A stretch of DNA of 64,000 nt from Oasisia sp. SBJ-2009 (Eukaryota > Annelida > Polychaeta > Sabellida > Siboglinidae), in assembly GCA_964017155.1 (NCBI GenBank), contig OZ024856.1:622501-686500 (forward strand), in the 5' to 3' direction. The notes below the pieces were generated by a model, which made no database searches, was not told the origin of the DNA, and worked only from the letters and a program-made list of their open reading frames with translations. Of the stretch, positions 1 through 64,000 are shown one piece after another. How positions within the stretch are numbered: the stretch's first letter is position 1; every line of letters starts with the position of its first letter. A program made the translations under genes and the position numbers.

Positions 1-493
1 ATTTTGTTAATTCAATCAATTATATTCATCTTTCGCATATTTATGTTTTATATACAGCGCGTCTTAGCAGACTTTTGAGGTCGAAAAGACAGCGTGGTCG
101 GCATATAAAACTGTTTATCGCTCATTTCATATGCACAGCGCAGTAACATGCACCGCTGCGCTTGCGACTGGCACAAATCGCGCTATCTTTTCGACCTCAA
201 AAGTTTGCCAAGACGCGCTGTTTATAAAATATAAATACGCGCAAGATGATTATAATTGAATTAATTAATTTAATCAAGTATCAAATGTTGGCAAAAATAC
301 TGATATAATAGCAACTTTGAGGTGGGTCCGACTTGTACATTAGTGCCAAATAGTGAAATACTGAAAACAAAATGAGAGTATACGTGCTTTTATGAGAGAG
401 TGCGCGTGAAGGTACGCGCCCGCAAGTGTAGGCATTTATGTACAAGTCGGGCCCACCTAAATTTTGGTATTATAACTGTATCTTTGCCAACAT
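1..493. repeat. Partial first monomer (alpha/b1)
   Basis: The window opens 10 bp inside a monomer whose start would lie at position -9. It is an alpha/b1 copy: GCGCAG, ATGCACC, GCTATC, AAATATAAATACGCG, GAATTAATTAAT, then ACATTAGTGCC, AAAATGAGAG and CACCTAAAT. It carries a private ACTTTGAGG instead of ACATTGAGG and a private TCTTTCGCAT in the left arm. Confidence 0.9.
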
Positions 494-997
494 TTGATAC
501 TTGATTTTGTTAATTCAATCAATTATATTCATCTTGCGCATTTTTATGTTTTATATACAGCGCGTCTTAGCAGACTTTTGAGGTCGAAAAGACAGCGTGG
601 TCGGCATAAACAAACTGTTTATCGCTCATTTCATATGCACAGCGTAGTAACATGCACCGCTGCGCTTGCGACTGGCACAAATCGCGCGGTCTTTTCGACC
701 TCAAAAGTTTGCCAAGACGCGCTGTTTATAAAACATAAATACCCGCAAGATGATTATAATTGAAGGAATTAATTTAATCAAGTATCAAATGTTGGCAAAA
801 ATACTGATATAATAGCAACATTGAGGTGGGTCCGACTTGTACATAAGTGTCAAATAGTGAAATAATGAAAACAAATTGAGAGCATACGTGCTTTTATGAG
901 AGAGTGCGCGTGAAGGTACGCGCCCGCAAGTGTAGGCATTGATGTACAAGTCGGGCCCACCTCAATTTTGCTATTATAACTGTATCTTTGCCAACAT

Positions 998-1500
998 TTG
1001 ATACTTGATTTTGTTAATTCAATCAATTATAATCATCTTGCGCATATTTATGTTTTATATACAGTGCGTCTTAGCAGACTTTTGAGGTCGAAAAGACACC
1101 GTGGTCGGCATATAAAACTGTTTATCGCTCATTTCATATGCACAGCGCAGTAACATGCATCGCTGCGCTTGCGACTGACACAAATCGCGCTATCTTTTCG
1201 ACCTCAAAAGTTTGCCAAGACGCGATGTTTATAAAACATAAATACGCGCAAGATGATTATAATTGAATGAATTAATTTAATCAAGTATCAAATGTTGGCA
1301 AAAATACTGATATAATAGCAACATTGAGGTGGGTCCGACTTGTACATAAGTGCCAAATAGTGAAATACTGAAAACAAATTGAGAGTATACGTGCTTTTAT
1401 GAGAGAGTGCGCATGAAGGTACGCGCCCGCAAGTGTAGGCATTTATGTACAAGTCGTGCACACCTCAATTTTGGTATTATAACTGTATCTTTGCCAACAT
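998..1500. repeat. Variant exemplar: gamma/b3 monomer (503 bp)
   Basis: Gamma module A: TATAATCAT, TATACAGTGCG, AGACACCGTGG, ATGCATCGC, ACTGACAC, GCGATG and AAACATAAATACGCG. The b3 module B: ACATAAGTGCC, GAGTATAC, GCATTTATG and GTCGTGCACACC, with GTGCAC replacing the GGGCCC palindrome of the other types (1456-1461 here). Gamma copies nearly always sit just after a beta or epsilon copy. Confidence 0.9.
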
Positions 1501-2003
1501 TTGATACTTGATTTTGTTAATTCAATCAATTATATTCATCTTGCGCATATTTATGTTTTATATACAGCGCGTCTTAGCAGACTTTTGAGGTCGAAAAGAC
1601 AGCGTGGTCGGCATATAAAACTGTTTATCGCTCATGTCATATGCACAGCGCAGTAACATGCACCGCTGCGCTTGCGACTGGCACAAATCGCGCTATCTTT
1701 TCGACCTCAAAAGTTTGCCAAGACGCGCTGTTTATAAAATATAAATACGCGCAAGATGATTATAATTGAATTAATTAATTTAATCAAGTATCAAATGTTG
1801 GCAAAAATACTGATATAATAGCAACATTGAGGTGGGTCCGACTTGTACATTAGTGCCAAATAGTGAAATACTGAAAACAAAATGAGAGTATACGTGCTTT
1901 TATGAGAGAGTGCGCGTGAAGGTACGCGCCCGCAAGTGTAGGCATTTATGTACAAGTCGGGCCCACCTAAATTTTGGTATTATAACTGTATCTTTGCCAA
2001 CAT
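1501..2003. repeat. Variant exemplar: alpha/b1 monomer (503 bp)
   Basis: Alpha module A: TATATTCAT, CGCATATTTATG, TATACAGCGCG, AGACAGCG, CATATAAAACTG, GCGCAG, ATGCACC, GCTATC, GCGCTG, AAATATAAATACGCG and GAATTAATTAAT. The b1 module B: ACATTAGTGCC, AAAATGAGAG, GTATAC, GCATTTATG, GGGCCC and CACCTAAATTTTGG. This copy has a private CATGTCAT. Many alpha copies elsewhere carry a different module B beginning TCAAAAATTGG, so A and B types are only loosely linked. Confidence 0.9.
1647..1672. other. Short perfect hairpin at the centre of spacer A
   Basis: AGCGCAG (1647-1653) is the perfect complement of CTGCGCT (1666-1672) across a 12-nt loop. The hairpin sits next to the dyad axis of module A, so it caps the long hairpin made by the 101-bp arms. 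Alpha, gamma and delta copies keep the 7-bp stem. Beta copies read AGCGTAG, which turns one pair into a G-T wobble in RNA. Epsilon copies read CTCCGCT on the right side, which breaks one pair. Confidence 0.7.
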
Positions 2004-2299
2004 TTGATACTTGATTTTGTTAATTCAATCAATTATATTCATCTTGCGCATTTTTATGTTTTATATACAGCGCGTCTTAGCAGACTTTTGAGGTCGAAAA
2101 GACAGCGTGGTCGGCATAAACAAACTGTTTATCGCTCATTTCATATGCACAGCGTAGTAACATGCACCGCTGCGCTTGCGACTGGCACAAATCGCGCTGT
2201 CTTTTCGACCTCAAAAGTTTGCCAAGACGCGCTGTTTATAAAACATAAATACCCGCAAGATGATTATAATTGAATGAATTAATTTAATCAAGTATCAAA
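2003..2299. repeat. Module A: 101-bp inverted repeat around a 95-bp spacer
   Basis: The left arm (2003-2103) and the reverse complement of the right arm (2199-2299) align without gaps with 11 mismatches in 101 bp, about 89% identity. Both outer ends read TTTGATACTTGATT and both inner ends read CTTTTGAGGTCGAAAAGAC in outward-to-inward sense. Pairing probably continues 4 bp inward (AGCG). The dyad axis lies near 2151. As single strand or RNA this would fold into a long imperfect hairpin. The same structure is present in every monomer, with type-specific substitutions. Confidence 0.95.
2085..2101 (+). other. 17-bp conserved core motif CTTTTGAGGTCGAAAAG (inverted partner at 2201-2217)
   Basis: This motif ends the inner side of both arms of module A and is itself a partial dyad (CTTTT/AAAAG around a 7-bp centre). 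It is among the least variable stretches of the monomer. The exceptions I noticed are GAGGCCG in the copy at 19623, GAGGACG in the copy at 57885, GAAAATAC at 24155, and CAACAG for CAAAAG in the right-arm copies at 18113, 44294 and 48321. A protein-binding role is possible but not shown. Confidence 0.6.
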
Positions 2300-2354
2300 T
2301 GTTGGCAAAAATACTGATATAATAGCAACATTGAGGTGGGTCCGACTTGTACAT
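2199..2354 (+). repeat. 156-bp half-unit block, forward copy
   Basis: The A right arm and B left arm are contiguous and form one 156-bp block. The reverse complement of 2452-2607 (B right arm plus next A left arm) matches it along its length. Using the within-monomer counts, the two orientations differ at about 16 of 156 positions. This block, not the 504-bp monomer, is the smallest repeated element, and it alternates in orientation along the array with spacers A (95 bp) and B (97 bp) in between (156+97+156+95=504). Confidence 0.9.
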
Positions 2355-2506
2355 AAGTGTCAAATAGTGAAATACTGAAAACAAATTGAGAGCATACGTG
2401 CTTTTATGAGAGAGTGCGCGTGAAGGTACGCGCCCGCAAGTGTAGGCATTGATGTACAAGTCGGGCCCACCTCAATTTTGCTATTATAACTGTATCTTTG
2501 CCAACA
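2300..2506. repeat. Module B: 55-bp inverted repeat around a 97-bp spacer
   Basis: The left arm (2300-2354) and the reverse complement of the right arm (2452-2506) align without gaps with 5 mismatches in 55 bp, about 91% identity. The arms begin TGTTGGCAAA and include ATTGAGGTGGG and CCGACTTGTACAT. The dyad axis is near 2403, 252 bp from the axis of module A, almost exactly half a monomer. The spacer shows no clear similarity to spacer A in either orientation by eye. Confidence 0.95.
2416..2433. other. Short perfect hairpin in spacer B
   Basis: GCGCGT (2416-2421) pairs with ACGCGC (2428-2433) across the 6-nt loop GAAGGT. It lies within 20 bp of the dyad axis of module B and is nearly invariant. 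The exceptions I saw are GCGCAT in the copies at 998 and 2508, and GGGCGT in the related copies at 51845, 53859 and 58893. A GC-rich stem in AT-rich surroundings at each axis is common to both modules. Confidence 0.7.
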
Positions 2507-2607
2507 TTTGATACTTGATTTTGTTAATTCAATCAATTATAATCATCTTGCGCATATTTATGTTTTATACACAGCGCGTCTTAGCAGACTTTTGAGGTCG
2601 AAAAGAC
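2452..2607 (-). repeat. 156-bp half-unit block, inverted copy
   Basis: This is the inverted partner of 2199-2354, crossing the boundary between two conventional monomers. It shows that the monomer start is arbitrary: the sequence reads continuously from the B right arm into the next A left arm, mirroring the A-right to B-left transition. The shared junction reads AATCAAGTATCAAATGTTGG on one strand in the forward block and on the other strand here. Confidence 0.9.
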
Positions 2608-3010
2608 AGCGTGGTCGGCATATAAAACTGTTTATCGCTCATTTCATATGCACAGCGCAGTAACATGCATCGCTGCGCTTCCGACTGGCACAAATCGCGC
2701 TATCTTTTCGACCTCAAAAGTTTGCCAAGACGCGATGTTTATAAAACATAAATACGCGCAAGATGATTATAATTGAATGAATTAATTTAATCAAGTATCA
2801 AAAGTTGGCAAAAATACTGATATAATAGCAACATTGAGGTGGGTCCGACTTGTACATAAGTGCCAAATAGTGAAATACTGAAAACAAATTGAGAGTATAC
2901 GTGCTTTTATGAGAGAGTGCGCATGAAGGTACGCGCCCACAAGTGTAGGCATTTATGTACAAGTCGTGCACACCTCAATTTTGGTATTATAACTGTATCT
3001 TTGCCAACAT
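2508..3010. repeat. Variant exemplar: delta/b3 monomer (503 bp)
   Basis: Delta module A: TATAATCAT, TATACACAGCGCG, AGACAGCG, ATGCATCGC, CTTCCGACTGG and GCGATG. It is followed by a b3 module whose left arm starts TCAAAAGTTGG and whose spacer reads CGCCCACAAG instead of CGCCCGCAAG. These two module B marks travel with delta and delta2 copies in most of the array. Confidence 0.9.
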
Positions 3011-3514
3011 TTGATACTTGATTTTGTTAATTCAATCAATTATATTCATCTTGCGCATATTTATGTTGTATATACAGCGCGTCTTAGCAGACTTTTGAGG
3101 TCGAAAAGACACCGCGGTCGGTATAAACAAACTGTTTATCGTTTATTTCATATGCTCAGCGCAGTAACATGCACCGCTCCGCTTGCGACTGTCACAAATC
3201 GCGCTGTCTTTTCGACCTCAAAAGTTTGCCAAGACGCGCTGTTTATAAAACATAAATACCCGCAAGATGATTATAATTGAATGAATTAATTTAATCAAGT
3301 ATCAAATGTTGGCAAAAATACTGATATAATAGCAACATTGAGGTGGGTCCGACTTGTACATAAGTGTCAAATAGTGAAATACTGAAAACAAATTGAGAGC
3401 ATACGTGCTTTTATGAGAGAGTGCGCGTGAAGGTACGCGCCCGCAAGTGTAGGCATTGATGTACAAGTCGGGCCCACCTCAATTTTGCTATTATAACTGT
3501 ATCTTTGCCAACAT
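3011..3514. repeat. Variant exemplar: epsilon/b2 monomer (504 bp)
   Basis: Epsilon module A: AGACACCGCGG, GGTATAAACAAAC, ATCGTTTATTTC, ATGCTCAGCG and CGCTCCGCTTG, with a beta-like right arm (GCTGTC, AAATACCCGC) and module b2. Epsilon occurs only at 3011, 4521, 9051, 12072, 14589 and 17106, so it is confined to the first 18 kb and marks the pentamer/hexamer HOR family there. This copy has private TGTTGTATA and ACTGTCAC. Confidence 0.9.
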
Positions 3515-4520
3515 TTGATACTTGATTTTGTTAATTCAATCAATTATAATCATCTTGCGCATATTTATGTTTTATATACAGTGCGTCTTAGCAGACTTTT
3601 GAGGTCGAAAAGACACCGTGGTCGGCATATAAAACTGTTTATCGCTCATTTCATATGCACAGCGCAGTAACATGCATCGCTGCGCTTGCGACTGACACAA
3701 ATCGCGCTATCTTTTCGACCTCAAAAGTTTGCCAAGACGCGATGTTTATAAAACATAAATACGCGCAAGATGATTATAATTGAATGAATTAATTTAATCA
3801 AGTATCAAATGTTGGCAAAAATACTGATATAATAGCAACATTGAGGTGGGTCCGACTTGTACATAAGTGCCAAATAGTGAAATACTGAAAACAAATTGAG
3901 AGTATACGTGCTTTTATGAGAGAGTGCGCGTGAAGGTACGCGCCCGCAAATGTAGGCATTTATGTACAAGTCGTGCACACCTCAATTTTGGTATTATAAC
4001 TGTATCTTTGCCAACATTTGATACTTGATTTTGTTAATTCAATCAATTATATTCATCTTGCGCATATTTATGTTTTATATACAGCGCGTCTTAGCAGACT
4101 TTTGAGGTCGAAAAGACAGCGTGGTCGGCATATACAACTGTTTATCGCTCATTTCATATGCACAGCGCAGTAACATGCACCGCTGCGCTTGCGACTGGCA
4201 CAAATCGCGCTATCTTTTCGACCTCAAAAGTTTGCCAAGACGCGCTGTTTATAAAATATAAATACGCGCAAGATGATTATAATTGAATTAATTAATTTAA
4301 TCAAGTATCAAAAATTGGCAAAAATACTGATATAATAGCAACATTGAGGTGGGTCCGACTTGTACATAAGTGCCAAATAGTGAAATACTGAAAACAAATT
4401 GAGAGTATACGTGCTTTTATGAGAGAGTGCGCGTGAAGGTACGCGCCCGCAAGTGTAGGCATTTATGTACAAGTCGTGCACACCTCAATTTTGGTATTAT
4501 AACTGTATCTTTGCCAACAT

Positions 4521-7500
4521 TTGATACTTGATTTTGTTAATTCAATCAATTATATTCATCTTGCGCATATTTATGTTTTATATACAGCGCGTCTTAGCAG
4601 ACTTTTGAGGTCGAAAAGACACCGCGGTCGGTATAAACAAACTGTTTATCGTTTATTTCATATGCTCAGCGCAGTAACACGCACCGCTCCGCTTGCGACT
4701 GGCACAAATAGCGCTGTCTTTTCGACCTCAAAAGTTTGCCAAGACGCGCTGTTTATAAAACATAAATACCCGCAAGATGATTATAATTGAATGAATTAAT
4801 TTAATCAAGTATCAAATGTTGGCAAAAATACTGATATAATAGCAACATTGAGGTGGGTCCGACTTGTACATAAGTGTCAAATAGTGAAATACTGAAAACA
4901 AATTGAGAGCATACGTGCTTTTATGAGAGAGTGCGCGTGAAGGTACGCGCCCGCAAGTGTAGGCATTGATGTACAAGTCGGGCCCACCTCAATTTTGCTA
5001 TTATAACTGTATCTTTGCCAACATTTGATACTTGATTTTGTTAATTCAATCAATTATAATCATCTTGCGCATATTTATGTTTTATATACAGTGCGTCTTA
5101 GCAGACTTTTGAGGTCGAAAAGACACCGTGGTCGGCATATAAAACTGTTTATCGCTCATTTCATATGCACAGCGCAGTAACATGCATCGCTGCGCTTGCG
5201 ACTGACACAAATCGCGCTATCTTTTCGACCTCAAAAGTTTGCCAAGACGCGATGTTTATAAAACATAAATACGCGCAAGATGATTATAATTGAATGAATT
5301 AATTTAATCAAGTATCAAATGTTGGCAAAAATACTGATATAATAGCAACATTGAGGTGGGTCCGACTTGTACATAAGTGCCAAATAGTGAAATACTGAAA
5401 ACAAATTGAGAGTATACGTGCTTTTATGAGAGAGTGCGCGTGAAGGTACGCGCCCGCAAGTGTAGGCATTTATGTACAAGTCGTGCACACCTCAATTTTG
5501 GTATTATAACTGTATCTTTGCCAACATTTGATACTTGATTTTGTTAATTCAATCAATTATATTCATCTTGCGCATATTTATGTTTTATATACAGCGCGTC
5601 TTAGCAGACTTTTGAGGTCGAAAAGACAGCGTGGTCGGCATATAAAACTGTTTATCGCTCATTTCATATGCACAGCGCAGTAACATGCACCGCTGCGCTT
5701 GCGACTGGCACAAATCGCGCTATCTTTTCGACCTCAAAAGTTTGCCAAGACGCGCTGTTTATAAAATATAAATACGCGCAAGATGATTATAATTGAATTA
5801 ATTAATTTAATCAAGTATCAAAAATTGGCAAAAATACTGATATAATAGCAACATTGAGGTGGGTCCGACTTGTACATAAGTGCCAAATAGTGAAATACTG
5901 AAAACAAATTGAGAGTATACGTGCTTTTATGAGAGAGTGCGCGTGAAGGTACGCGCCCGCAAGTGTAGGCATTTATGTACAAGTCGTGCACACCTCAATT
6001 TTGGTATTATAACTGTATCTTTGCCAACATTTGATACTTGATTTTGTTAATTCAATCAATTATATTCATCTTGCGCATATTTATGTTTTATATACAGCGC
6101 GTCTTAGCAGACTTTTGAGGTCGAAAAGACACCGTGGTCGGCATATAAAACTGTTTATCGCTCATTTCATATGCACAGCGCAGTAACATGCATCGCTGCG
6201 CTTGCGACTGACACAAATCGCGCTATCTTTTCGACCTCAAAAGTTTGCCAAGACGCGATGTTTATAAAACATAAATACGCGCAAGATGATTATAATTGAA
6301 TGAATTAATTTAATCAAGTATCAAATGTTGGCAAAAATACTGATATAATAGCAACATTGAGGTGGGTCCGACTTGTACATAAGTGCCAAATAGTGAAATA
6401 CTGAAAACAAATTGAGAGTATACGTGCTTTTATGAGAGAGTGCGCGTGAAGGTACGCGCCCGCAAGTGTAGGCATTTATGTACAAGTCGTGCACACCTCA
6501 ATTTTGGTATTATAACTGTATCTTTGCCAACATTTGATACTTGATTTTGTTAATTCAATCAATTATATTCATCTTGCGCATATTTATGTTTTATATACAG
6601 CGCGTCTTAGCAGACTTTTGAGGTCGAAAAGACAGCGTGGTCGGCATATAAAACTGTTTATCGCTCATTTCATATGCACAGCGCAGTAACATGCACCGCT
6701 GCGCTTGCGACTGGCACAAATCGCGCTATCTTTTCGACCTCAAAAGTTTGCCAAGACGCGCTGTTTATAAAATATAAATACGCGCAAGATGATTATAATT
6801 GAATTAATTAATTTAATCAAGTATCAAAAATTGGCAAAAATACTGATATAATAGCAACATTGAGGTGGGTCCGACTTGTACATAAGTGCCAAATAGTGAA
6901 ATACTGAAAACAAATTGAGAGTATACGTGCTTTTATGAGAGAGTGCGCGTGAAGGTACGCGCCCGCAAGTGTAGGCATTTATGTACAAGTCGTGCACACC
7001 TCAATTTTGGTATTATAACTGTATCTTTGCCAACATTTGATACTTGATTTTGTTAATTCAATCAATTATATTCATCTTGCGCATATTTATGTTTTATATA
7101 CAGCGCGTCTTAGCAGACTTTTGAGGTCGAAAAGACAGCGTGGTCGGCATATAAAACTGTTTATCGCTCATTTCATATGCACAGCGCAGTAACATGCACC
7201 GCTGCGCTTGCGACTGGCACAAATCGCGCTATCTTTTCGACCTCAAAAGTTTGCCAAGACGCGCTGTTTATAAAATATAAATACGCGCAAGATGATTATA
7301 ATTGAATTAATTAATTTAATCAGGTATCAAAAATTGGCAAAAATACTGATATAATAGCAACATTGAGGTGGGTCCGACTTGTACATAAGTGCCAAATAGT
7401 GAAATACTGAAAACAAATTGAGAGTATACGTGCTTTTATGAGAGAGTGCGCGTGAAGGTACGCGCCCGCAAGTGTAGGCATTTATGTACAAGTCGGGCCC

Positions 7501-7539
7501 ACCTCAATTTTGGTATTATAACTGTATCTTTGCCAACAT
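4521..7539. repeat. HOR block 3: epsilon-gamma-alpha trimer, then shortened repeats
   Basis: Starts are 4521, 5025, 5528, 6031, 6534 and 7037. The first three repeat 3011-4520 at a 1510-bp offset. Then come a gamma/alpha hybrid (6031), an alpha (6534) and another alpha (7037), as if the trimer had been duplicated again with progressive loss. The copy at 6031 begins like alpha (TATATTCAT, CAGCGCG) and switches to gamma by AGACACCGTGG. The copy at 7037 carries private CAGGTATC and ends with GGGCCC although its left B arm is of the GTGCAC class. Confidence 0.8.
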
Positions 7540-13500: not shown

Positions 13501-13581
13501 TACGCGCCCGCAAGTGTAGGCATTTATGTACAAGTCGGGCCCACCTAAATTTTGGTATTATAACTGTATCTTTGCCAACAT
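7540..13581. repeat. HOR block 4: hexamer, two copies of 3021 bp
   Basis: Copy 1 starts are 7540, 8044, 8548, 9051, 9555 and 10058. Copy 2 starts are 10561, 11065, 11569, 12072, 12576 and 13079. The order is beta', beta, delta, epsilon, gamma, alpha. Beta' joins a beta left half to an alpha right half (GCTATC, AGACTCGCTG, AAATATAAATACGCG) and is unique to these two positions. Shared private marks include CAATGTTGC after beta, GTATGCGTG in gamma and TTTGCGAAG in alpha. The only difference I noticed is AGACAACG at 9555 versus AGACACCG at 12576, so the duplication is recent. Confidence 0.9.
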
Positions 13582-34730: not shown

Positions 34731-37700
34731 TTGATACTTGATTTTGTTAATTCAATCAATTATATTCATCTTGCGCATTTTTATGTTTTATATACAGGGC
34801 GTCTTAGCAGACTTTTGAGGTCGAAAAGACAGCGTGGTCGGCATAAACAAACTGTTTATCGCTCATTTCATATGCACAGCGTAGTAACATGCACCGCTGC
34901 GCTTGCGACTAGCACAAATCGCGCTGTCTTTTCGACCTCAAAAGTTTGCCAAGACGCGCTGTTTATAAAACATAAATACCCGCAAGATGATTATAATTGA
35001 ATGAATTAATTTAATCAAGTATCAAATGTTGGCAAAAATACTGATATAATAGCAACATTGAGGTGGGACCGACTTGTACATAAGTGCCAAATAGTGAAAT
35101 AGTGAAAACAAATTGAGAGTATACGTGCTTTTATGAGAGAGTGCGCGTGAAGGTACGCGCCCGCAAGTGTAGGCATTGATGTACAAGTCGGGCCCACCTC
35201 AATTTTGGTATTATAACTGTATCTATGCCAACATTTGATACTTGATTTTGTTAATTCAATCAATTATAATCATCTTACGCATATTAATGTTTTATACACA
35301 GCGCGTCTTAGCAGACTTTTGAGGTCGAAAAGACAGCGTGGTCGGCATATAAAACTGTTTATCGCTCATTTCATATGCACAGCGCAGTAACATGCATCGC
35401 TGCGCTTCCGACTGGCACAAATCGCGCTATCTTTTCGACCTCAAAAGTTTGCCAAGACGCGATGTTTATAAAACATAAATACGCGCAAGATGATTATAAT
35501 TGAATGAATTAATTTAATCAAGTATCAAAAGTTGGCAAAAATACTGATATAATAGCAACATTGAGGTGGGTCCGACTTGTACATAAGTGTCAAATAGTGA
35601 AATACTGAAAACAAATTGAGAGCATACGTGCTTTTATGAGAGAGTGCGCGTGAAGGTACGCGCCCGCAAGTGTAGGCATTGATGTACAAGTCGGGCCCAC
35701 CTCAATTTTGCTATTATAACTGTATCTTTGCCAACATTTGATACTTGATTTTGTTAATTCAATCAATTATAATCATCTTGCGCATATTTATGTTTTATAT
35801 ACAGTGCGTCTTAGCAGACTTTTGAGGTCGAAAAGACACCGTGGTCGGCATATAAAACTGTTTATCGCTCATTTCATATGCACAGCGCAGTAACATGCAT
35901 CGCTGCGCTTGCGACTGACACAAATCGCGCTATCTTTTCGACCTCAAAAGTTTGCCAAGACGCGATGTTTATAAAACATAAATACGCGCAAGATGATTAT
36001 AATTGAATGAATTAATTTAATCAAGTATCAAATGTTGGCAAAAATACTGATATAATAGCAACATTGAGGTGGGTCCGACTTGTACATAAGTGCCAAATAG
36101 TGAAATACTGAAAACAAATTGAGAGTATACGTGCTTTTATGAGAGAGTGCGCGTGAAGGTACGCGCCCGCAAGTGTAGGCATTTATGTACAAGTCGTGCA
36201 CACCTCAATTTTGGTATTATAACTGTATCTTTGCCAACATTTGATACTTGATTGTGTTAATTCAATCAATTATATTCATATTGCGCATATTTATGTTTTA
36301 TATACAGCGCGTCTTAGCAGACTTTTGAGGTCGAAAAGACAGCGTGGTCGGCATATAAAACTGTTTATCGCTCATTCCATATGCACAGCGCAGTAACATG
36401 CACCGCTGCGCTTGCGACTGGCACAAATCGCGCTATCTTTTCGACCTCAAAAGTTTGCCAAGACGCGCTGTTTATAAAATATAAATACGCGCAAGATGAT
36501 TATAATTGAATTAATTAATTTAATCAAGTATCAAAAATTGGCAAAAATACTGATATAATAGCAACATTGAGGTGGGTCCGACTTGTACATAAGTGTCAAA
36601 TAGTGAAATACTGAAAACAAATTGAGAGCATACGTGCTTTTATGAGAGAGTGCGCGTGAAGGTACGCGCCCGCAAGTGTAGGCATTGATGTACAAGTCGG
36701 GCCCACCTCAATTTTGCTATTATAACTGTATCTTTGCCAACATTTGATACTTGATTTTGTTAATTCAATCAATTATAATCATCTTGCGCATATTTATGTT
36801 TTATATACAGTGCGTCTTAGCAGACTTTTGAGGTCGAAAAGACACCGTGGTCGGCATATAAAACTGTTTATCGCTCATTTCATATGCACAGCGCAGTAAC
36901 ATGCATCGCTGCGCTTGCGACTGACACAAATCGCGCTATCTTTTCGACCTCAAAAGTTTGCCAAGACGCGATGTTTATAAAACATAAATACGCGCAAGAT
37001 GATTATAATTTAATGAATTAATTTAATCAAGTATCAAATGTTGGCAAAAATACTGATATAATAGCAACATTGAGGTGGGTCCGACTTGTACATAAGTGCC
37101 AAATAGTGAAATTCTGAAAACAAATTGAGAGTATACGTGCTTTTATGAGAGAGTGCGCGTGAAGGTACGCGCCCGCAAGTGTAGGCATTTATGTACAAGT
37201 CGTGCACACCTCAATTTTGGTATTATAACTGTATCTTTGCCAACATTTGATACTTGATTTTGTTAATTCAATCAATTATATTCATCTTGCGCATATTTAT
37301 GTTTTATATACAGCGCGTCTTAGCAGACTTTTGAGGTCGAAAAGACAGCGTGGTCGGCATATAAAACTGTTTATCGCTCATTTCATATGCACAGCGCAGT
37401 AACATGCACCGCTGCGCTTGCGACTGGCACAAATCGCGCTATCTTTTCGACCTCAAAAGTTTGCCAAGACGCGCTGTTTATAAAATATAAATACGCGCAA
37501 GATGATTATAATTGAATTAATTAATTTAATCAAGTATCAAAAATTGGCAAAAATACTGATATAATAGCAACATTGAGGTGGGTCCGACTTGTACATAAGT
37601 GCCAAATAGTGAAATACTGAAAACAAATTGAGAGTATACGTGCTTTTATGAGAGAGTGCGCGTGAAGGTACGCGCCCGCAAGTGTAGGCATTTATGTACA

Positions 37701-37749
37701 AGTCGTGCACACCTCAATTTTGGTATTATAACTGTATCTTTGCCAACAT
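34731..37749. repeat. HOR block 11: divergent hexamer (3019 bp)
   Basis: Starts are 34731, 35235, 35738, 36241, 36744 and 37247. Positions 1, 5 and 6 match the hexamer that follows (beta with CTAGCAC and b4; gamma with AATTTAATG and GAAATTCTG; alpha with TCAAAAATTGG). Positions 3 and 4 are a gamma and a GATTGTGTT alpha instead of alpha and beta. The two hexamers therefore share ends but differ in the middle. Confidence 0.8.
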
Positions 37750-40700
37750 TTGATACTTGATTTTGTTAATTCAATCAATTATATTCATCTTGCGCATTTT
37801 TATGTTTTATATACAGGGCGTCTTAGCAGACTTTTGAGGTCGAAAAGACAGCGTGGTCGGCATAAACAAACTGTTTATCGCTCATTTCATATGCACAGCG
37901 TAGTAACATGCACCGCTGCGCTTGCGACTAGCACAAATCGCGCTGTCTTTTCGACCTCAAAAGTTTGCCAAGACGCGCTGTTTATAAAACATAAATACCC
38001 GCAAGATGATTATAATTGAATGAATTAATTTAATCAAGTATCAAATGTTGGCAAAAATACTGATATAATAGCAACATTGAGGTGGGACCGACTTGTACAT
38101 AAGTGCCAAATAGTGAAATAGTGAAAACAAATTGAGAGTATACGTGCTTTTATGAGAGAGTGCGCGTGAAGGTACGCGCCCGCAAGTGTAGGCATTGATG
38201 TACAAGTCGGGCCCACCTCAATTTTGGTATTATAACTGTATCTATGCCAACATTTGATACTTGATTTTGTTAATTCAATCAATTATAATCATCTTACGCA
38301 TATTAATGTTTTATACACAGCGCGTCTTAGCGGACTTTTGAGGTCGAAAAGACAGCGTGGTCGGCATATAAAACTGTTTATCGCTCATTTCATATGCACA
38401 GCGCAGTAACATGCATCGCTGCGCTTCCGACTGGCACAAATCGCGCTATCTTTTCGACCTCAAAAGTTTGCCAAGACGCGATGTTTATAAAACATAAATA
38501 CGCGCAAGATGATTATAATTGAATGAATTAATTTAATCAAGTATCAAAAGTTGGCAAAAATACTGATATAATAGCAACATTGAGGTGGGTCCGACTTGTA
38601 CATAAGTGCCAAATAGTGAAATACTGAAAACAAATTGAGAGTATACGTGCTTTTATGAGAGAGTGCGCGTGAAGGTACGCGCCCACAAGTGTAGGCATTT
38701 ATGTACAAGTCGTGCACACCTCAATTTTGGTATTATAACTGTATCTTTGCCAACATTTGATACTTGATTTTGTTAATTCAATCAATTATATTCATCTTGC
38801 GCATATTTATGTTTTATATACAGCGCGTCTTAGCAGACTTTTGAGGTCGAAAAGACAGCGTGGTCGGCATATAAAACTGTTTATCGCTCATTTCATATGC
38901 ACAGCGCAGTAACATGCACCGCTGCGCTTGCGACTGGCACAAATCGCGCTATCTTTTCGACCTCAAAAGTTTGCCAAGACGCGCTGTTTATAAAATATAA
39001 ATACGCGCAAGATGATTATAATTGAATTAATTAATTTAATCAAGTATCAAATGTTGGCAAAAATACTGATATAATAGCAACATTGAGGTGGGTCCGACTT
39101 GTACATTAGTGCCAAATAGTGAAATACTGAAAACAAAATGAGAGTATACGTGCTTTTATGAGAGAGTGCGCGTGAAGGTACGCGCCCGCAAGTGTAGGCA
39201 TTTATGTACAAGTCGGGCCCACCTCAATTTTGGTATTATAACTGTATCTTTGCCAACATTTGATACTTGATTTTGTTAATTCAATCAATTATATTCATCT
39301 TGCGCATTTTTATGTTTTATATACAGCGCGTCTTAGCAGACTTTTGAGGTCGAAAAGACAGCGTGGTCGGCATAAACAAACTGTTTATCGCTCATTTCAT
39401 ATGCACAGCGTAGTAACATGCACCGCTGCGCTTGCGACTGGCACAAATCGCGCTGTCTTTTCGACCTCAAAAGTTTGCCAAGACGCGCTGTTTATAAAAC
39501 ATAAATACCCGCAAGATGATTATAATTGAATGAATTAATTTAATCAAGTATCAAATGTTGGCAAAAATACTGATATAATAGCAACATTGAGGTGGGTCCG
39601 ACTTGTACATAAGTGTCAAATAGTGAAATACTGAAAACAAATTGAGAGCATACGTGCTTTTATGAGAGAGTGCGCGTGAAGGTACGCGCCCGCAAGTGTA
39701 GGCATTGATGTACAAGTCGGGCCCACCTCAATTTTGCTATTATAACTGTATCTTTGCCAACATTTGATACTTGATTTTGTTAATTCAATCAATTATAATC
39801 ATCTTGCGCATATTTATGTTTTATATACAGTGCGTCTTAGCAGACTTTTGAGGTCGAAAAGACACCGTGGTCGGCATATAAAACTGTTTATCGCTCATTT
39901 CATATGCACAGCGCAGTAACATGCATCGCTGCGCTTGCGACTGACACAAATCGCGCTATCTTTTCGACCTCAAAAGTTTGCCAAGACGCGATGTTTATAA
40001 AACATAAATACGCGCAAGATGATTATAATTTAATGAATTAATTTAATCAAGTATCAAATGTTGGCAAAAATACTGATATAATAGCAACATTGAGGTGGGT
40101 CCGACTTGTACATAAGTGCCAAATAGTGAAATTCTGAAAACAAATTGAGAGTATACGTGCTTTTATGAGAGAGTGCGCGTGAAGGTACGCGCCCGCAAGT
40201 GTAGGCATTTATGTACAAGTCGTGCACACCTCAATTTTGGTATTATAACTGTATCTTTGCCAACATTTGATACTTGATTTTGTTAATTCAATCAATTATA
40301 TTCATCTTGCGCATATTTATGTTTTATATACAGCGCGTCTTAGCAGACTTTTGAGGTCGAAAAGACAGCGTGGTCGGCATATAAAACTGTTTATCGCTCA
40401 TTTCATATGCACAGCGCAGTAACATGCACCGCTGCGCTTGCGACTGGCACAAATCGCGCTATCTTTTCGACCTCAAAAGTTTGCCAAGACGCGCTGTTTA
40501 TAAAATATAAATACGCGCAAGATGATTATAATTGAATTAATTAATTTAATCAAGTATCAAAAATTGGCAAAAATACTGATATAATAGCAACATTGAGGTG
40601 GGTCCGACTTGTACATAAGTGCCAAATAGTGAAATACTGAAAACAAATTGAGAGTATACGTGCTTTTATGAGAGAGTGCGCGTGAAGGTACGCGCCCGCA

Positions 40701-54864: not shown

Positions 54865-57800
54865 TTGATACTTGATTTTGTTAATTCAATCAATTATATT
54901 CATCTTGCGCATTTTTATGTTTTATATACAGCGCGTCTTAGCAGACTTTTGAGGTCGAAAAGACAGCGTGGTCGGCATAAACAAACTGTTTATCGCTCAT
55001 TTCATATGCACAGCGTAGTAACATGCACCGCTGCGCTTGCGACTGGCACAAATCGCGCTGTCTTTTCGACCTCAAAAGTTTGCCAAGACGCGCTGTTTAT
55101 AAAACATAAATACCCGCAAGATGATTATAATTGAATGAATTAATTTAATCAAGTATCAAATGTTGGCAAAAATACTGATATAATAGCAACATTGAGGTGG
55201 GTCCGACTTGTACATAAGTGTCAAATAGTGAAATACTGAAAACAAATTGAGAGCATACGTGCTTTTATGAGAGAGTGCGCGTGAAGGTACGCGCCCGCAA
55301 GTGTAGGCATTGATGTACAAGTCGGGCCCACCTCAATTTTGCTATTATAACTGTATCTTTGCCAACATTTGATACTTGATTTTGTTAATTCAATCAATTA
55401 TAATCATCTTGCGCATATTTATGTTTTATATACAGTGCGTCTTAGCAGACTTTTGAGGTCGAAAAGACACCGTGGTCGGCATATAAAACTGTTTATCGCT
55501 CATTTCATATGCACAGCGCAGTAACATGCATCGCTGCGCTTGCGACTGACACAAATCGCGCTATCTTTTCGACCTCAAAAGTTTGCCAAGACGCGATGTT
55601 TATAAAACATAAATACGCGCAAGATGATTATCATTTAATGAATTAATTTAATCAAGTATCAAATGTTGGCAAAAATACTGATATAATAGCAACATTGAGG
55701 TGGGTCCGACTTGTACATAAGTGCCAAATAGTGAAATTCTGAAAACAAATTGAGAGTATACGTGCTTTTATGAGAGAGTGCGCGTGAAGGTACGCGCCCG
55801 CAAGTGTAGGCATTTATGCACAAGTCGTGCACACCTCAATTTTGGTATTATAACTGTATCTTTGCCAACATTTGATACTTGATTTTGTTAATTCAATCAA
55901 TTATATTCATCTTGCGCATATTTATGTTTTATATACAGCGCGTCTTAGCAGACTTTTGAGGTCGAAAAGACAGCGTGGTCGGCATATAAAACTGTTTATC
56001 GCTCATTCCATATGCACAGCGCAGTAACATGCACCGCTGCGCTTGCGACTGGCACAAATCGCGCTATCTTTTCGACCTCAAAAGTTTGCCAAGACGCGCT
56101 GTTAATAAAATATAAATACGCGCAAGATGATTATAATTGAATTAATTAATTTAATCAAGTATCAAAAATTGGCAAAAATACTGATATAATAGCAACATTG
56201 AGGTGGGTCCGACTTGTACATAAGTGCCAAATAGTGAAATACTGAAAACAAATTGAGAGTATACGTGCTTTTATGAGAGAGTGCGCGTGAAGGTACGCGC
56301 CCGCAAGTGTAGGCATTTATGTACAAGTCGGGCCCACCTAAATTTTGGTATTATAACTGTATCTTTGCCAACATTTGATACTTGATTTTGTTAATTCAAT
56401 CAATTATATTCATCTTGCGCATTTTTATGTTTTATATACAGCGCGTCTTAGCAGACTTTTGAGGTCGAAAAGACAGCGTGGTCGGCATAAACAAACTGTT
56501 TATCGCTCATTTCATATGCACAGCGTAGTAACATGCACCGCTGCGCTTGCGACTGGCACAAATCGCGCTGTCTTTTCGACCTCAAAAGTTTGCCAAGACG
56601 CGCTGTTTATAAAACATAAATACCCGCAAGATGATTATAATTGAATGAATTAATTTAATCAAGTATCAAATGTTGGCAAAAATACTGATATAATAGCAAC
56701 ATTGAGGTGGATCCGACTTGTACATAAGTGTCAAATAGTGAAATACTGAAAACAAATTGAGAGCATACGTGCTTTTATGAGAGAGTGCGCGTGAAGGTAC
56801 GCGCCCGCAAGTGTAGGCATTGATGTACAAGTCGGGCCCACCTCAATTTTGCTATTATAACTGTATCTTTGCCAACATTTGATACTTGATTTTGTTAATT
56901 CAATCAATTATAATCATCTTGCGCATATTTATGTTTTATATACAGTGCGTCTTAGCAGACTTTTGAGGTCGAAAAGACACCGTGGTCGGCATATAAAACT
57001 GTTTATCGCTCATTTCATATGCACAGCGCAGTAACATGCATCGCTGCGCTTGCGACTGACACAAATCGCGCTATCTTTTCGACCTCAAAAGTTTGCCAAG
57101 ACGCGATGTTTATAAAACATAAATACGCGCAAGATGATTATAATTTAATGAATTAATTTAATCAAGTATCAAATGTTGGCAAAAATACTGATATAATAGC
57201 AACATTGAGGTGGGTCCGACTTGTACATAAGTGCCAAATAGTGAAATTCTGAAAACAAATTGAGAGTATACGTGCTTTTATGAGAGAGTGCGCGTGAAGG
57301 TACGCGCCCGCAAGTGTAGGCATTTATGTACAAGTCGTGCACACCTCAATTTTGGTATTATAACTGTATCTTTGCCAACATTTGATACTTGATTTTGTTA
57401 ATTCAATCAATTATATTCATCTTGCGCATATTTATGTTTTATATACAGCGCGTCTTAGCAGACTTTTGAGGTCGAAAAGACAGCGTGGTCGGCATATAAA
57501 ACTGTTTATCGCTCATTTCTTATGCACAGCGCAGTAACATGCACCGCTGCGCTTGCGACTGGCACAAATCGCGCTATCTTTTCGACCTCAAAAGTTTGCC
57601 AAGACGCGCTGTTTATAAAATATAAATACGCGCAAGATGATTATAATTGAATTAATTAATTTAATCAAGTATCAAAAATTGGCAAAAATACTGATATAAT
57701 AGCAACATTGAGGTGGGTCCGACTTGTACATAAGTGCCAAATAGTGAAATACTGAAAACAAATTGAGAGTATACGTGCTTTTATGAGAGAGTGCGCGTGA

Positions 57801-57884
57801 AGGTACGCGCCCGCAAGTGTAGGCATTTATGTACAAGTCGTGCACACCTCAATTTTGGTATTATAACTGTATCTTTGCCAACAT
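54865..57884. repeat. HOR block 16: beta-gamma-alpha trimer, two copies of 1510 bp
   Basis: Starts are 54865, 55369 and 55872, then 56375, 56879 and 57382. Both gammas carry the TTTAATG change before the B module and GAAATTCTG. The two alphas differ: 55872 has CATTCCAT, GTTAATAAA and CACCTAAAT, and 57382 has TTTCTTATGC and GTGCAC. The first gamma has TTATCATTT and ATGCACAAG as private changes. Confidence 0.88.
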
Positions 57885-60800
57885 TTGATACTTGATTTTG
57901 TTAATTCAATCAATTATATTCATCTTGCGCATTTTTATGTTTTATATACAGGGCGTCTTAGCAGACTTTTGAGGACGAAAAGACAGCGTGGTCGGCATAA
58001 ACAAACTGTTTATCGCTCATTTCATATGCACAGCGTAGTAACATGCACCGCTGCGCTTGCGACTGGCACAAATCGCGCTGTCTTTTCGACCTCAAAAGTT
58101 TGCCAAGACGCGCTGTTTATAAAACATAAATACCCGCAAGATGATTATAATTGAATGAATTAATTTAATCAAGTATCAAATGTTGGCAAAAATACTGATA
58201 TAATAGCAACATTGAGGTGGGTCCGACTTGTACATAAGTGTCAAATAGTGAAATACTGAAAACAAATTGAGAGTATACGTGCTTTTATGAGAGAGTGCGC
58301 GTGAAGGTACGCGCCCGCAAGTGTAGGCATTGATGTACAAGTCGGGCCCACCTAAATTTTGGTATTATAACTGTATCTTTGCCAACATTTGATACTTGAT
58401 TTTGTTAATTCAATCAATTATATTCATCTTGCGCATTTTTATGTTTTATATACAGCGCGTCTTAACAGACTTTTGAGGTCGAAAAGACAGCGTGGTCGGC
58501 ATAAACAAACTGTTTATCGCTCATTTCATATGCACAGCGTAGTAACATGCACCGCTGCGCTTGCGACTGGCACAAATCGCGCTGTCTTTTCGACCTCAAA
58601 AGTTTGCCAAGACGCGCTGTTTATAAAACATAAATACCCGCAAGATGATTATAATTGAATGAATTAATTTAATCAAGTACCAAATGTTGGCAAAAATACT
58701 GATATAATAGCAACATTGAGGTGGGTCCGACTTTTACATAAGTGTCAAATAGTGAAATACTGAAAACAAATTGAGAGCATACGTGCTTTTATGAGAGAGT
58801 GCGCGTGAAGGTACGCGCCCGCAAGTGTAGGCATTGATGTACAAGTCGGGCCCACCTCAATTTTGCTATTATAACTGTATCTTTGCCAACATTTGATACT
58901 TGATTTTGTTAATTCAATCAATTATAATCATCTTGCGCATATTTATGTTTTATATACAGTGCGTCTTAGCAGACTTTTGAGGTCGAAAAGACACCGTGGT
59001 CGGCATATAAAACTGTTTATCGCTCATTTCATATGCACAGCGCAGTAACATGCATCGCTGCGCTTGCGACTGACACAAATCGCGCTATCTTTTCGACCTC
59101 AAAAGTTTGCCAAGACGCGATGTTTCTAAAACATAAATACGCGCAAGAAGATTATAATTGAATGAATTAATTTAATCAAGTATCAAATGTTGGCAAAAAT
59201 ACTGATATAATAGCAACATTGAGGTGGGTCCGACTTGTACATAAGTGCCAAATAGTGAAATACTGAAAACAAATTGAGAGTATACGTGCTTTTATGAGAG
59301 AGTGGGCGTGAAGGTACGCGCCCGCAAGTGTAGGCATTCATGTACAAGTCGTGCACACCTCAATTTTGGTATTATAACTGTATCTTTGCCAACATTTGAT
59401 ACTTGATTGTGTTAATTCAATCAATTATATTCATATTGCGCATATTTATGTTTTATATACAGCGCGTCTTAGCAGACTTTTGAGGTCGAAAAGACAGCGT
59501 GGTCGGCATATAAAACTGTTTATCGCTCATTCCATATGCACAGCGCAGTAACATGCACCGCTGCGCTTGCGACTGGCACAAATCGCGCTATCTTTTCGAC
59601 CTCAAAAGTTTGCCAAGACGCGCTGTTTATAAAATATAAATACGCGCAAGATGATTATCATTGAATTAATTAATTTAATCAAGTATCAGAAATTGGCAAA
59701 AATACTGATATAATAGCAACATTGAGGTGGGTCCGACTTGTACATAAGTGCCAAATAGTGAAATACTGAAAACAAATTGAGAGTATACGTGCTTTTATGA
59801 GAGAGTGCGCGTGAAGGTACGCGCCCGCAAGTGTAGGCATTTATGTACAAGTCGGGCCCACCTAAATTTTGGTATTATAACTGTATCTTTGCCAACATTT
59901 GATACTTGATTTTGTTAATTCAATCAATTATATTCATCTTGCGCATTTTTATGTTTTATATACAGCGCGTCTTAGCAGACTTTTGAGGTCGAAAAGACAG
60001 CGTGGTCGGCATAAACAAACTGTTTATCGCTCATTTCATATGCACAGCGTAGTAACATGCACCGCTGCGCTTGCGACTGGCACAAATCGCGCTGTCTTTT
60101 CGACCTCAAAAGTTTGCCAAGACCCGCTGTTTATAAAACATAAATACCCGCAAGATGATTATAATTGAATGAATTAATTTAATCAAGTATCAAATGTTGG
60201 CAAAAATACTGATATAATAGCAACATTGAGGTGGGTCCGACTTGTACATAAGTGTCAAATAGTGAAATACTGAAAACAAATTGAGAGCATACGTGCTTTT
60301 ATGAGAGAGTGCGCGTGAAGGTACGCGCCCGCAAGTGTAGGCATTGATGTACAAGTCGGGCCCACCTCAATTTTGCTATTATAACTGTATCTTTGCCAAC
60401 ATTTGATACTTGATTTTGTTAATTCAATCAATTATAATCATCTTGCGCATATTTATGTTTTATATACAGTGCGTCTTAGCAGACTTTTGAGGTCGAAAAG
60501 ACACCGTGGTCGGCATATAAAACTGTTTATCGCTCATTTCATATGCACAGCGCAGTAACATGCATCGCTGCGCTTGCGACTGACACAAATCGCGCTATCT
60601 TTTCGACCTCAAAAGTTTGCCAAGACGCGATGTTTATAAAACATAAATACGCGCAAGATGATTATCATTTAATGAATTAATTTAATCAAGTATCAAATGT
60701 TGGCAAAAATACTGATATAATAGCAACATTGAGGTGGGTCCGACTTGTACATAAGTGCCAAATAGTGAAATTCTGAAAACAAATTGAGAGTATACGTGCT

Positions 60801-62918
60801 TTTATGAGAGAGTGCGCGTGAAGGTACGCGCCCGCAAGTGTAGGCATTTATGTACAAGTCGTGCACACCTCAATTTTGGTATTATAACTGTATCTTTGCC
60901 AACATTTGATACTTGATTTTGTTAATTCAATCAATTATATTCATCTTGCGCATATTTATGTTTTATATACAGCGCGTCTTAGCAGACTTTTGAGGTCGAA
61001 AAGACAGCGTGGTCGGCATATAAAACTGTTTATCGCTCATTCCATATGCACAGCGCAGTAACATGCACCGCTGCGCTTGCGACTGGCACAAATCGCGCTA
61101 TCTTTTCGACCTCAAAAGTTTGCCAAGACGCGCTGTTTATAAAATATAAATACGCGCAAGATGATTATAATTGAATTAATTAATTTAATCAAGTATCAAA
61201 AATTGGCAAAAATACTGATATAATAGCAACATTGAGGTGGGTCCGACTTGTACATAAGTGCCAAATAGTGAAATACTGAAAACAAATTGAGAGTATACGT
61301 GCTTTTATGAGAGAGTGCGCGTGAAGGTACGCGCCCGCAAGTGTAGGCATTTATGTACAAGTCGGGCCCACCTAAATTTTGGTATTATAACTGTATCTTT
61401 GCCAACATTTGATACTTGATTTTGTTAATTCAATCAATTATATTCATCTTGCGCATTTTTATGTTTTATATACAGCGCGTCTTAGCAGACTTTTGAGGTC
61501 GAAAAGACAGCGTGGTCGGCATAAACAAACTGTTTATCGCTCATTTCATATGCACAGCGTAGTAACATGCACCGCTGCGCTTGCGACTGGCACAAATCGC
61601 GCTGTCTTTTCGACCTCAAAAGTTTGCCAAGACGCGCTGTTTATAAAACATAAATACCCGCAAGATGATTATAATTGAATGAATTAATTTAATCAAGTAT
61701 CAAATGTTGGCAAAAATACTGATATAATAGCAACATTGAGGTGGGTCCGACTTGTACATAAGTGTCAAATAGTGAAATACTGAAAACAAATTGAGAGCAT
61801 ACGTGCTTTTATGAGAGAGTGCGCGTGAAGGTACGCGCCCGCAAGTGTAGGCATTGATGTACAAGTCGGGCCCACCTCAATTTTGCTATTATAACTGTAT
61901 CTTTGCCAACATTTGATACTTGATTTTGTTAATTCAATCAATTATAATCATCTTGCGCATATTTATGTTTTATATACAGTGCGTCTTAGCAGACTTTTGA
62001 GGTCGAAAAGACACCGTGGTCGGCATATAAAACTGTTTATCGCTCATTTCATATGCACAGCGCAGTAACATGCATCGCTGCGCTTGCGACTGACACAAAT
62101 CGCGCTATCTTTTCGACCTCAAAAGTTTGCCAAGACGCGATGTTTATAAAACATAAATACGCGCAAGATGATTATAATTTAACGAATTAATTTAATCAAG
62201 TATCAAATGTTGGCAAAAATACTGATATAATAGCAACATTGAGGTGGGTCCGACTTGTACATAAGTGCCAAATAGTGAAATTCTGAAAACAAATTGAGAG
62301 TATACGTGCTTTTATGAGAGAGTGCGCGTGAAGGTACGCGCCCGCAAGTGTAGGCATTTATGTACAAGTCGTGCACACCTCAATTTTGGTATTATAACTG
62401 TATCTTTGCCAACATTTGATAGTTGATTTTGTTAATTCAATCAATTATATTCATCTTGCGCATATTTATGTTTTATATACAGCGCGTCTTAGCAGACTTT
62501 TGAGGTCGAAAAGACAGCGTGGTCGGCATATAAAACTGTTTATCGCTCATTTCTTATGCACAGCGCAGTAACATGCACCGCTGCGCTTGCGACTGGCACA
62601 AATCGCGCTATCTTTTCGACCTCAAAAGTTTGCCAAGACGCGCTGTTTATAAAATATAAATACGCGCAAGATGATTATAATTGAATTAATTAATTTAATC
62701 AAGTATCAAAAATTGGCAAAAATACTGATATAATAGCAACATTGAGGTGGGTCCGACTTGTACATAAGTGCCAAATAGTGAAATACTGAAAACAAATTGA
62801 GAGTATACGTGCTTTTATGAGAGAGTGCGCGTGAAGGTACGCGCCCGCAAGTGTAGGCATTTATGTACAAGTCGTGCACACCTCAATTTTGGTATTATAA
62901 CTGTATCTTTGCCAACAT
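57885..62918. repeat. HOR block 17: second decamer unit
   Basis: Starts are 57885, then 58389, 58893 and 59396, then 59899, 60403 and 60906, then 61409, 61913 and 62416. It contains one GTACC-type trimer and two 1510-bp beta-gamma-alpha trimers, in the same order as 53355-57884. The leading beta at 57885 has private GAGGACG inside the otherwise conserved core motif. The beta at 58389 has CTTAACAGAC. Confidence 0.87.
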
Positions 62919-64000
62919 TTGATACTTGATTTTGTTAATTCAATCAATTATATTCATCTTGCGCATTTTTATGTTTTATATACAGGGCGTCTTAGCAGAC
63001 TTTTGAGGTCGAAAAGACAGCGTGGTCGGCATAAACAAACTGTTTATCGCTCATTTCATATGCACAGCGTAGTAACATGCACCGCTGCGCTTGCGACTAG
63101 CACAAATCGCGCTGTCTTTTCGACCTCAAAAGTTTGCCAAGACGCGCTGTTTATAAAACATAAATACCCGCAAGATGATTATAATTGAATGAATTAATTT
63201 AATCAAGTATCAAATGTTGGCAAAAAAACTGATATAATAGCAACATTGAGGTGGGACCGACTTGTACATAAGTGCCAAATAGTGAAATAGTGAAAACAAA
63301 TTGAGAGTATACGTGCTTTTATGAGAGAGTGCGCGTGAAGGTACGCGCCCGCAAGTGTAGGCATTTATGTACAAGTCGTGCACACCTCAATTTTGGTATT
63401 ATAACTGTATCTTTGCCAACATTTGATACTTGATTTTGTTAATTCAATCAATTATATTCATCTTGCGCATATTTATGTTTTATATACAGCGCGTCTTAGC
63501 AGACTTTTGAGGTCGAAAAGACAGCGTGGTCGGCATATAAAACTGTTTATCGCTCATTTCATATGCACAGCGCAGTAACATGCACCGCTGCGCTTGCGAC
63601 TGGCACAAATCGCGCTATCTTTTCGACCTCAAAAGTTTGCCAAGACGCGCTGTTTATAAAATATAAATACGCGCAAGATGATTATAATTGAATTAATTAA
63701 TTTAATCAAGTATCAAAAATTGGCAAAAATACTGATATAATAGCAACATTGAGGTGGGTCCGACTTGTACATAAGTGCCAAATAGTGAAATACTGAAAAC
63801 AAATTGAGAGTATACGTGCTTTTATGAGAGAGTGCGCGTGAAGGTACGCGCCCGCAAGTGTAGACATTTATGTACAAGTCGTGCACACCTCAATTTTGGT
63901 ATTATAACTGTATCTTTGCCAACATTTGATACTTGATTTTGTTAATTCAATCAATTATATTCATCTTGCGCATTTTTATGTTTTATATACAGCGCGTCTT
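62919..64000. repeat. HOR block 18: end of window, beta-alpha-beta
   Basis: Starts are 62919, 63423 and 63926 (75 bp of a beta copy). The beta at 62919 has CTAGCAC, linking it to the hexamer betas at 34731-43287. Its module B begins as b4 (GGTGGGACC, GAAATAGTG) and ends as b3 (GTGCAC, TATCTTTGCC), another mosaic. The array clearly continues past the window. Confidence 0.88.

What the first reader, a model, noticed from the sequence alone, without database searches (positions are those of the whole stretch)
1..64000. A 64-kb mirror lattice: 156-bp blocks alternate in orientation with a dyad axis about every 252 bp
Ordinary tandem satellites are direct repeats. Here the A right arm plus B left arm (2199-2354) recurs inverted as the B right arm plus next A left arm (2452-2607) at about 90% identity without gaps, and this holds along the whole array. 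The two dyad axes of a monomer lie about 252 bp apart, almost exactly half the unit, and the two spacers are nearly equal in size (95 and 97 bp) but unrelated by eye. Complex monomers built of inversely oriented subunits are known in some beetle satellites (for example Tribolium brevicornis), so the principle has precedent. I do not recognise this sequence.
Basis: seen in the sequence. Interest (0 to 1): 0.85.

Follow-up and report, generated by a model that had tools for sequence, protein, structure and literature searches.

The report
Satellite DNA with inverted half-repeats
The stretch is one long array of a 503-base satellite repeat whose unit carries the same 167-base block twice, facing opposite ways; this is a rare but known way of building a satellite, and here the two facing blocks appear to have evolved separately instead of correcting each other.

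Summary
The 64-kb window is a head-to-tail array of a 503/504-bp satellite (126 full monomers). Each monomer holds a 167-bp block (X) and an inverted copy (Y), separated by unrelated spacers of 83 bp (B) and 86/87 bp (A). Arm identity is 89.8% in consensus and 83.8-90.4% at the 250 axes tested. Dyad spacing of half the unit is no extra regularity: a tandem unit with one equal-length inverted pair must have a second axis at P/2. The 'mirror lattice' reduces to one fact, an inverted pair inside the monomer. That kind is known: Tribolium brevicornis, T. madens TmSat2, Trichogramma brassicae (PMC13081366). New here: X and Y share no common polymorphism in 167 paired columns, and 13 of 17 consensus differences show no other-arm base in any copy, whereas 346 of 861 site pairs show four gametes among monomers. 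I detect no clear arm-to-arm conversion, and no significant extra conservation of the arms. The palindrome looks inherited from the founding monomer and carried along by amplification. Species and sequence family remain unidentified; no eukaryotic genomes were searchable.

The parts
1..64000 (+). Array of a 503/504-bp satellite, 126 full monomers plus partial ends, one orientation
   Evidence: blastn of one monomer (plus strand only) gives 128 hits; the 127 full-start hits are 503 (72) or 504 (54) bp apart, which leaves no room for other sequence or inverted monomers between them
2011..2513 (+). One monomer, used as reference
2195..2361 (+). Block X (167 bp), an example; 127 copies in the window
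2362..2444 (.). Spacer B (83 bp) with a dyad axis at about 2403, an example; 83 bp in 126 of 126
2445..2611 (-). Block Y (167 bp), the inverted partner of X, an example; 126 copies; consensus differs from X at 17 of 167 positions
2612..2697 (.). Spacer A (86 bp here) with a dyad axis at about 2655, an example; scored 86 bp in 72 and 87 bp in 54 of 126
   Evidence: in the gap-aware alignment the one-base length variants are 51 insertions in spacer A, 4 in X and 1 deletion in Y

Best explanation
This is a complex-monomer satellite DNA. An ancestral segment that already held two inverted copies of a 167-bp block around a spacer was amplified in tandem as one 503-bp unit; the boundary between units then became the second dyad. 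Direct exchange between monomers keeps the array about 97% alike and has made recent multi-monomer duplications. The two inverted arms are copied along but do not visibly correct each other, so they have drifted about 10% apart in consensus. I infer that 83-87-bp spacers and scattered mismatches (longest identical run between the consensus arms 24 bp) keep the 252 potential hairpins mostly unextruded, which lets the array persist. Shown here: anatomy, similarity and mixing among monomers, no clear arm exchange. Inferred: the origin, low extrusion, and a heterochromatic location.
For: Pure array without ORF of 90 aa or more, tRNA or Rfam family. Monomers differ on average at 15.1 of 506 alignment columns. 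X against Y, counting alleles seen in 3 or more copies: 123 of 167 paired columns the same, 9 fixed differences, 4 different with polymorphism and no shared allele, 31 with polymorphism private to one allele set, 0 shared polymorphisms. Of 17 consensus differences, 13 show the other arm's base in none of 126 X and 125 Y copies; runs of other-arm bases reach 1 diagnostic site in 42 X copies, 1 in 42 Y copies and 2 in 3 Y copies. Neighbouring X-Y pairs are no more alike than random X-Y pairs (1525 and 1280 of 2000 permutations as high or higher for the two axes). Among monomers, 346 of 861 pairs of common sites show all four gametes, and exact repeats reach 3595 bp at a six-monomer distance.
Against: The near-equal spacer sizes are not explained. 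At 4 of 17 diagnostic sites the other arm's base does occur (42 X copies at site 4; 45 Y at 69; 27 Y and 1 X at 130; 4 Y at 134), and 3 Y copies carry it at two neighbouring sites (130 and 134); I read these as retained or recurrent states, but short conversion tracts are not excluded. An ungapped count gave 1 shared polymorphism, which I attribute to four X copies shifted by a one-base insertion; the gap-aware count gave 0. Four-gamete pairs can also come from recurrent mutation. For the low-extrusion step there is no evidence here, and PMC3215922 (passages) reports inverted Alu pairs unstable in yeast with spacers up to about 100 bp, which would include 83-87 bp.
Confidence: 0.68

Rival explanations
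1. The palindrome is functional and kept by selection: hairpins or cruciforms at the two axes mark (peri)centromeric chromatin, or transcripts from either strand fold into long double-stranded RNA that feeds small-RNA heterochromatin.
For: One stretch per axis was folded and both fold far beyond shuffles (z -32.0 and -27.8). The chromatin idea is proposed for Tribolium by PMC13081366 (passages and part of section 7). All 250 axes tested keep at least 83.8% identity. By one cut-off, arms have somewhat fewer polymorphic sites than spacers (24 of 334 against 18 of 169).
Against: That difference is not significant (Fisher p = 0.23), and with another cut-off it reverses (25 of 334 against 11 of 169). 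The least diverse segment is spacer B, not an arm. At the 31 columns with private polymorphism the unshared allele does not match any common allele of the other arm, so it breaks the pair, and no column shows matching polymorphism in both arms. Only 8 of 17 arm differences are transitions, so there is no strong lean to G-U pairs.
Confidence: 0.15
2. The monomer descends from a foldback or MITE-like transposon with long terminal inverted repeats whose copies became tandem and share their ends.
For: One inverted pair around a spacer is also the layout of a foldback element; the foldback element Tetris provided building blocks of a satellite in Drosophila virilis (PMC4079207, abstract).
Against: Dispersed copies, target-site duplications and a transposase could not be sought, as only array sequence is in hand. 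By its abstract, Tetris seeded a satellite from tandem repeats inside its ends, not from the whole inverted pair. A TTAA near the middle of the block beside the only run of three consecutive X/Y differences (sites 88-90) is no more than a hint.
Confidence: 0.15
3. Assembly or sequencing artefact (foldback reads).
For: Foldback reads can create inverted copies (recalled).
Against: The arms differ by fixed differences (9 sites), spacer B is 83 bp in 126 of 126, and the pattern runs through 78 distinct monomer sequences of 126.
Confidence: 0.02

Closest known systems
Tribolium brevicornis major satellite (Mravinac et al. 2005; paper not held; sizes taken from passages of PMC13081366)
   Same: Complex monomer made of two long inversely oriented segments, tandemly repeated
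   Different: About 470-bp inverted segments in 1061 bp, against 167 bp in 503 here; sequences could not be compared
Tribolium madens TmSat2 (PMC13081366, passages and first part of section 7)
   Same: Long imperfect inverted repeats within the monomer; predicted monomer fold energy -133.78 kcal/mol in that paper, about -159 for the stretches folded here (programs and lengths differ)
   Different: 704 bp, built of seven related subunits of 59-113 bp, with arms of about 300 bp; its arrays also switch orientation at the kilobase scale, which is not seen in this window
Trichogramma brassicae satellite (cited in PMC13081366, passage)
   Same: Inverted repeats inside a satellite monomer of a few hundred bp
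   Different: 80-bp inverted repeats in 385 bp; sequences could not be compared
Human Y and X palindromes (PMC3723533, PMC8981503; start of abstracts in the search listing)
   Same: Inverted arms around a spacer
   Different: Single large palindromes whose arms are kept above 99% alike by gene conversion; here no clear conversion between arms is seen

Membership tests
Satellite DNA | Long head-to-tail array of non-coding, highly similar monomers | tested here: met
   126 full monomers of 503/504 bp; no ORF of 90 aa or more
Satellite DNA | Heterochromatic location and high genomic copy number | not testable with these tools
   No genome is held for the window
Complex-monomer satellite with inversely oriented subunits (T. 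brevicornis kind) | Two long inversely oriented related segments within each monomer | tested here: met
   167-bp arms, 83.8-90.4% identity at 250 of 250 axes tested
T. brevicornis satellite family itself | Sequence homology | not testable with these tools
   Neither its sequence nor the paper is held
Macro-dyad arrays of T. madens | Monomer orientation switches between kilobase subarrays | tested here: inconclusive
   No switch within this window: 127 plus-strand monomer starts at 503/504-bp steps and strict X/Y alternation; the array beyond the window was not seen
Palindrome kept by arm-to-arm gene conversion | Arms share polymorphisms or carry conversion tracts | tested here: not met
   0 shared polymorphisms in 167 columns (alleles in 3 or more copies); longest other-arm run 2 diagnostic sites, in 3 of 125 Y copies
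Foldback/MITE-derived satellite | Dispersed copies with target-site duplications | not testable with these tools
   No genome is held

The most novel reading that the evidence does not exclude
The two-axis monomer is a selected chromatin device: every X can pair with the Y on its left or on its right, giving a switchable hairpin register over tens of kilobases, kept just divergent and spaced enough to avoid breakage, and marking a centromere or seeding double-stranded RNA.
Probability: 0.08. Interest if true: 0.7.

Novelty: new member of a known kind. Interest (0 to 1): 0.35.

Why it matters
PMC13081366 calls long dyads within satellite monomers 'not so common' and proposes that satellite dyads shape (peri)centromeric chromatin (passages). 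This array allows a direct test of upkeep: with 126 copies of each arm side by side, the arms show no clear exchange although monomers look well mixed. That argues that such palindromes can be passive relics of the founding unit and need not be maintained.

Tried and rejected
Tandem Repeats Finder returned no rows; its longest period is 500 and the unit is 503. Deeper symmetry: ten comparisons of spacers and block halves gave nothing convincing; the lowest were spacer B against inverted X (11 of 300 shuffles as high), spacer A against its own reverse complement (18 of 300) and spacer B against X (27 of 300), weak after ten tests. Self-complementarity of the block is within dinucleotide shuffles. 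A direct similarity at lag 245/258 of the monomer exceeds all 200 shuffles (0.366 against a maximum of 0.350), but is concentrated in the short AT-rich quasi-palindrome in the middle of the block (pair I4); I do not build on it. A 10-bp rhythm of AT dinucleotides lies above the 95th percentile of 500 mononucleotide shuffles (2.66 against 2.25): weak. That 167 bp is about the length of DNA on a chromatosome is recalled, and I draw nothing from it.

Searches for relatives: no match in plasmids or phages, none in genome contigs for two exact patterns, none in viral contigs for two exact patterns. A 16-base pattern hit 17 viral contigs; in the blastn rows printed, which cover all 17, matches to the monomer are 16-21 bases long (best E = 2.6e-4, 21 bases, L006, a locus already selected for its 16-base match), so I take them as chance. 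None of these collections holds eukaryotes.

Paper searches: the one for a 503-bp satellite with inverted repeats found no paper. The library lacks most subscription journals, so this does not show that the satellite is undescribed. In the toad-satellite paper PMC9385698 and the review PMC8122249 I saw passages only; both list the T. brevicornis paper among their references.

In the ungapped scan, four X copies (31-33 mismatches) and one Y copy (19) look divergent because of one-base indels; fixed and private sites are therefore counted on the gap-aware alignment. The permutation test still includes those copies.

Full report
What is there. The window is one satellite array. One monomer (2011-2513) used as a plus-strand blastn query returns 128 hits; the 127 hits that begin at the monomer's first base are 503 bp (72 times) or 504 bp (54 times) apart, giving 126 full monomers. 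There is no ORF of 90 aa or more, no tRNA and no Rfam family at gathering score. Tandem Repeats Finder reports nothing; its longest period is 500.

The mirror structure. Each monomer reads X - spacer B - inverted X (called Y) - spacer A. Extended to its limits the block is 167 bp; the X and Y consensus sequences differ at 17 of 167 positions (89.8% identity) without a gap. In the window 127 X and 126 Y blocks alternate without exception; spacer B is 83 bp in 126 of 126, spacer A is scored 86 bp in 72 and 87 bp in 54; the 251 intervals between the 252 axes are 251.5 bp (143) or 252.0 bp (108). The one-base length variants are, in the alignment, 51 insertions in spacer A, 4 in X and 1 deletion in Y, so a few of the 54 are really longer X blocks. 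Copy by copy, gap-aware arm identity averages 87.1%, ranging from 84.4 to 90.4% over 125 B axes and from 83.8 to 89.8% over 125 A axes. Random inverted pairs average 26.4%, with none of 3000 above 80%.

What follows from geometry. If a tandem unit of length P holds one inverted pair of equal arm length, a second axis must fall between Y and the next X, and the two axes must be P/2 apart: 86/2 + 167 + 83/2 = 251.5 = 503/2. The two dyads, their spacing and the lattice are therefore one fact and not three. Only the near-equal spacer lengths are an independent coincidence, and I have no explanation for it. The spacers are not related to each other on either strand (282 and 126 of 300 shuffles score as high).

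How it evolves. Monomers differ on average at 15.1 of 506 alignment columns; neighbours differ by 17.5 on average and third neighbours by 12.7, a sign of local higher-order patterns; 78 of 126 monomer sequences are distinct. Seven exact repeats of 1500 bp or more were found at distances of 480 to 39999 bp, the longest 3595 bp, six monomers apart. Of 861 pairs among 42 common polymorphic sites, 346 show all four combinations. So exchange in direct orientation looks active, though recurrent mutation can add to that count.

Between the arms the picture is opposite. Counting alleles seen in 3 or more copies, of 167 paired columns 123 are the same in both arms, 9 are fixed differences, 4 differ with polymorphism and no shared allele, 31 have polymorphism with only one allele in common, and none has a shared polymorphism. 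An ungapped count had given one, which I attribute to four X copies shifted by an insertion. At 13 of the 17 consensus differences not one of 126 X or 125 Y copies carries the other arm's base. At the other four it occurs: site 4 in 42 X copies, site 69 in 45 Y copies, site 130 in 27 Y copies and 1 X copy, site 134 in 4 Y copies. The longest run of other-arm bases is one diagnostic site in X and two (130 and 134) in 3 Y copies. Those three copies could be a short conversion tract or a retained state. Neighbouring X-Y pairs are no more alike than pairs drawn at random (1525 and 1280 of 2000 permutations as high or higher). I conclude that there is no clear arm-to-arm conversion here, in contrast to human sex-chromosome palindromes, which conversion keeps above 99% alike (PMC3723533, PMC8981503; start of abstracts in a listing).

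Is the symmetry under selection? Both registers fold well as single strands: -159 kcal/mol for 2194-2610 and -159.1 for 2445-2864, against -42.4 and -43.7 for shuffles. That is the consequence of the inverted pair and says nothing of use. Polymorphic sites number 24 of 334 in arms against 18 of 169 in spacers (Fisher p = 0.23), or 25 of 334 against 11 of 169 with another cut-off; mean site diversity is 0.028 (X), 0.032 (Y), 0.034 (spacer A) and 0.017 (spacer B). I find no significant sign that pairing itself is constrained, though selection on a loose structure is not excluded.

Mechanism. The best reading is a founding unit that already held the inverted pair, then tandem amplification and homogenisation in direct orientation. 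A mismatch about every ten bases and spacers over 80 bp at both axes may lower hairpin formation. PMC7999016 (passages) supports the direction of this effect: longer and more similar arms with shorter spacers are riskier, and inverted Alu repeats with a 52-bp spacer stalled replication often in E. [quoted passage not shown] PMC3215922 (passages), however, puts inverted Alu instability in yeast at spacers up to about 100 bp, which would include this one. The step is inference.

Place among known things. PMC13081366 (abstract, passages and the first part of section 7) calls long dyads within satellite repeats 'not so common' and names T. brevicornis (1061 bp, about 470-bp inverted segments), T. 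madens TmSat2 (704 bp, about 300 bp) and Trichogramma brassicae (385 bp, 80 bp). This array belongs to that kind by anatomy. Kinship of sequence could not be tested, nor the species: no genome is held for the window, and the collections searched are of prokaryotes, plasmids, phages and viral contigs, where nothing meaningful matched.

Noticed in passing
36538-40132 and its copy 3020 bp downstream (the two overlap): Longest exact repeat found, 3595 bp at a six-monomer distance; six others of 1683-2447 bp, a sign of recent multi-monomer duplication.
   Followed up: partly
1-64000: Adjacent monomers are less alike (17.5 differences) than third neighbours (12.7); lags 3, 6, 11, 17 and 23 are lowest among lags 1-40: irregular local higher-order repeats.
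   Followed up: partly
2266-2295 and the matching place in other blocks: Short AT-rich quasi-palindrome around TTAA near the middle of the 167-bp block, next to the only run of three consecutive X/Y consensus differences (sites 88-90).
   Followed up: no
2362-2444 (spacer B): Spacer B has the lowest diversity of the four segments (0.017 against 0.028-0.034) and is 83 bp in 126 of 126; it might hold a protein site.
   Followed up: no
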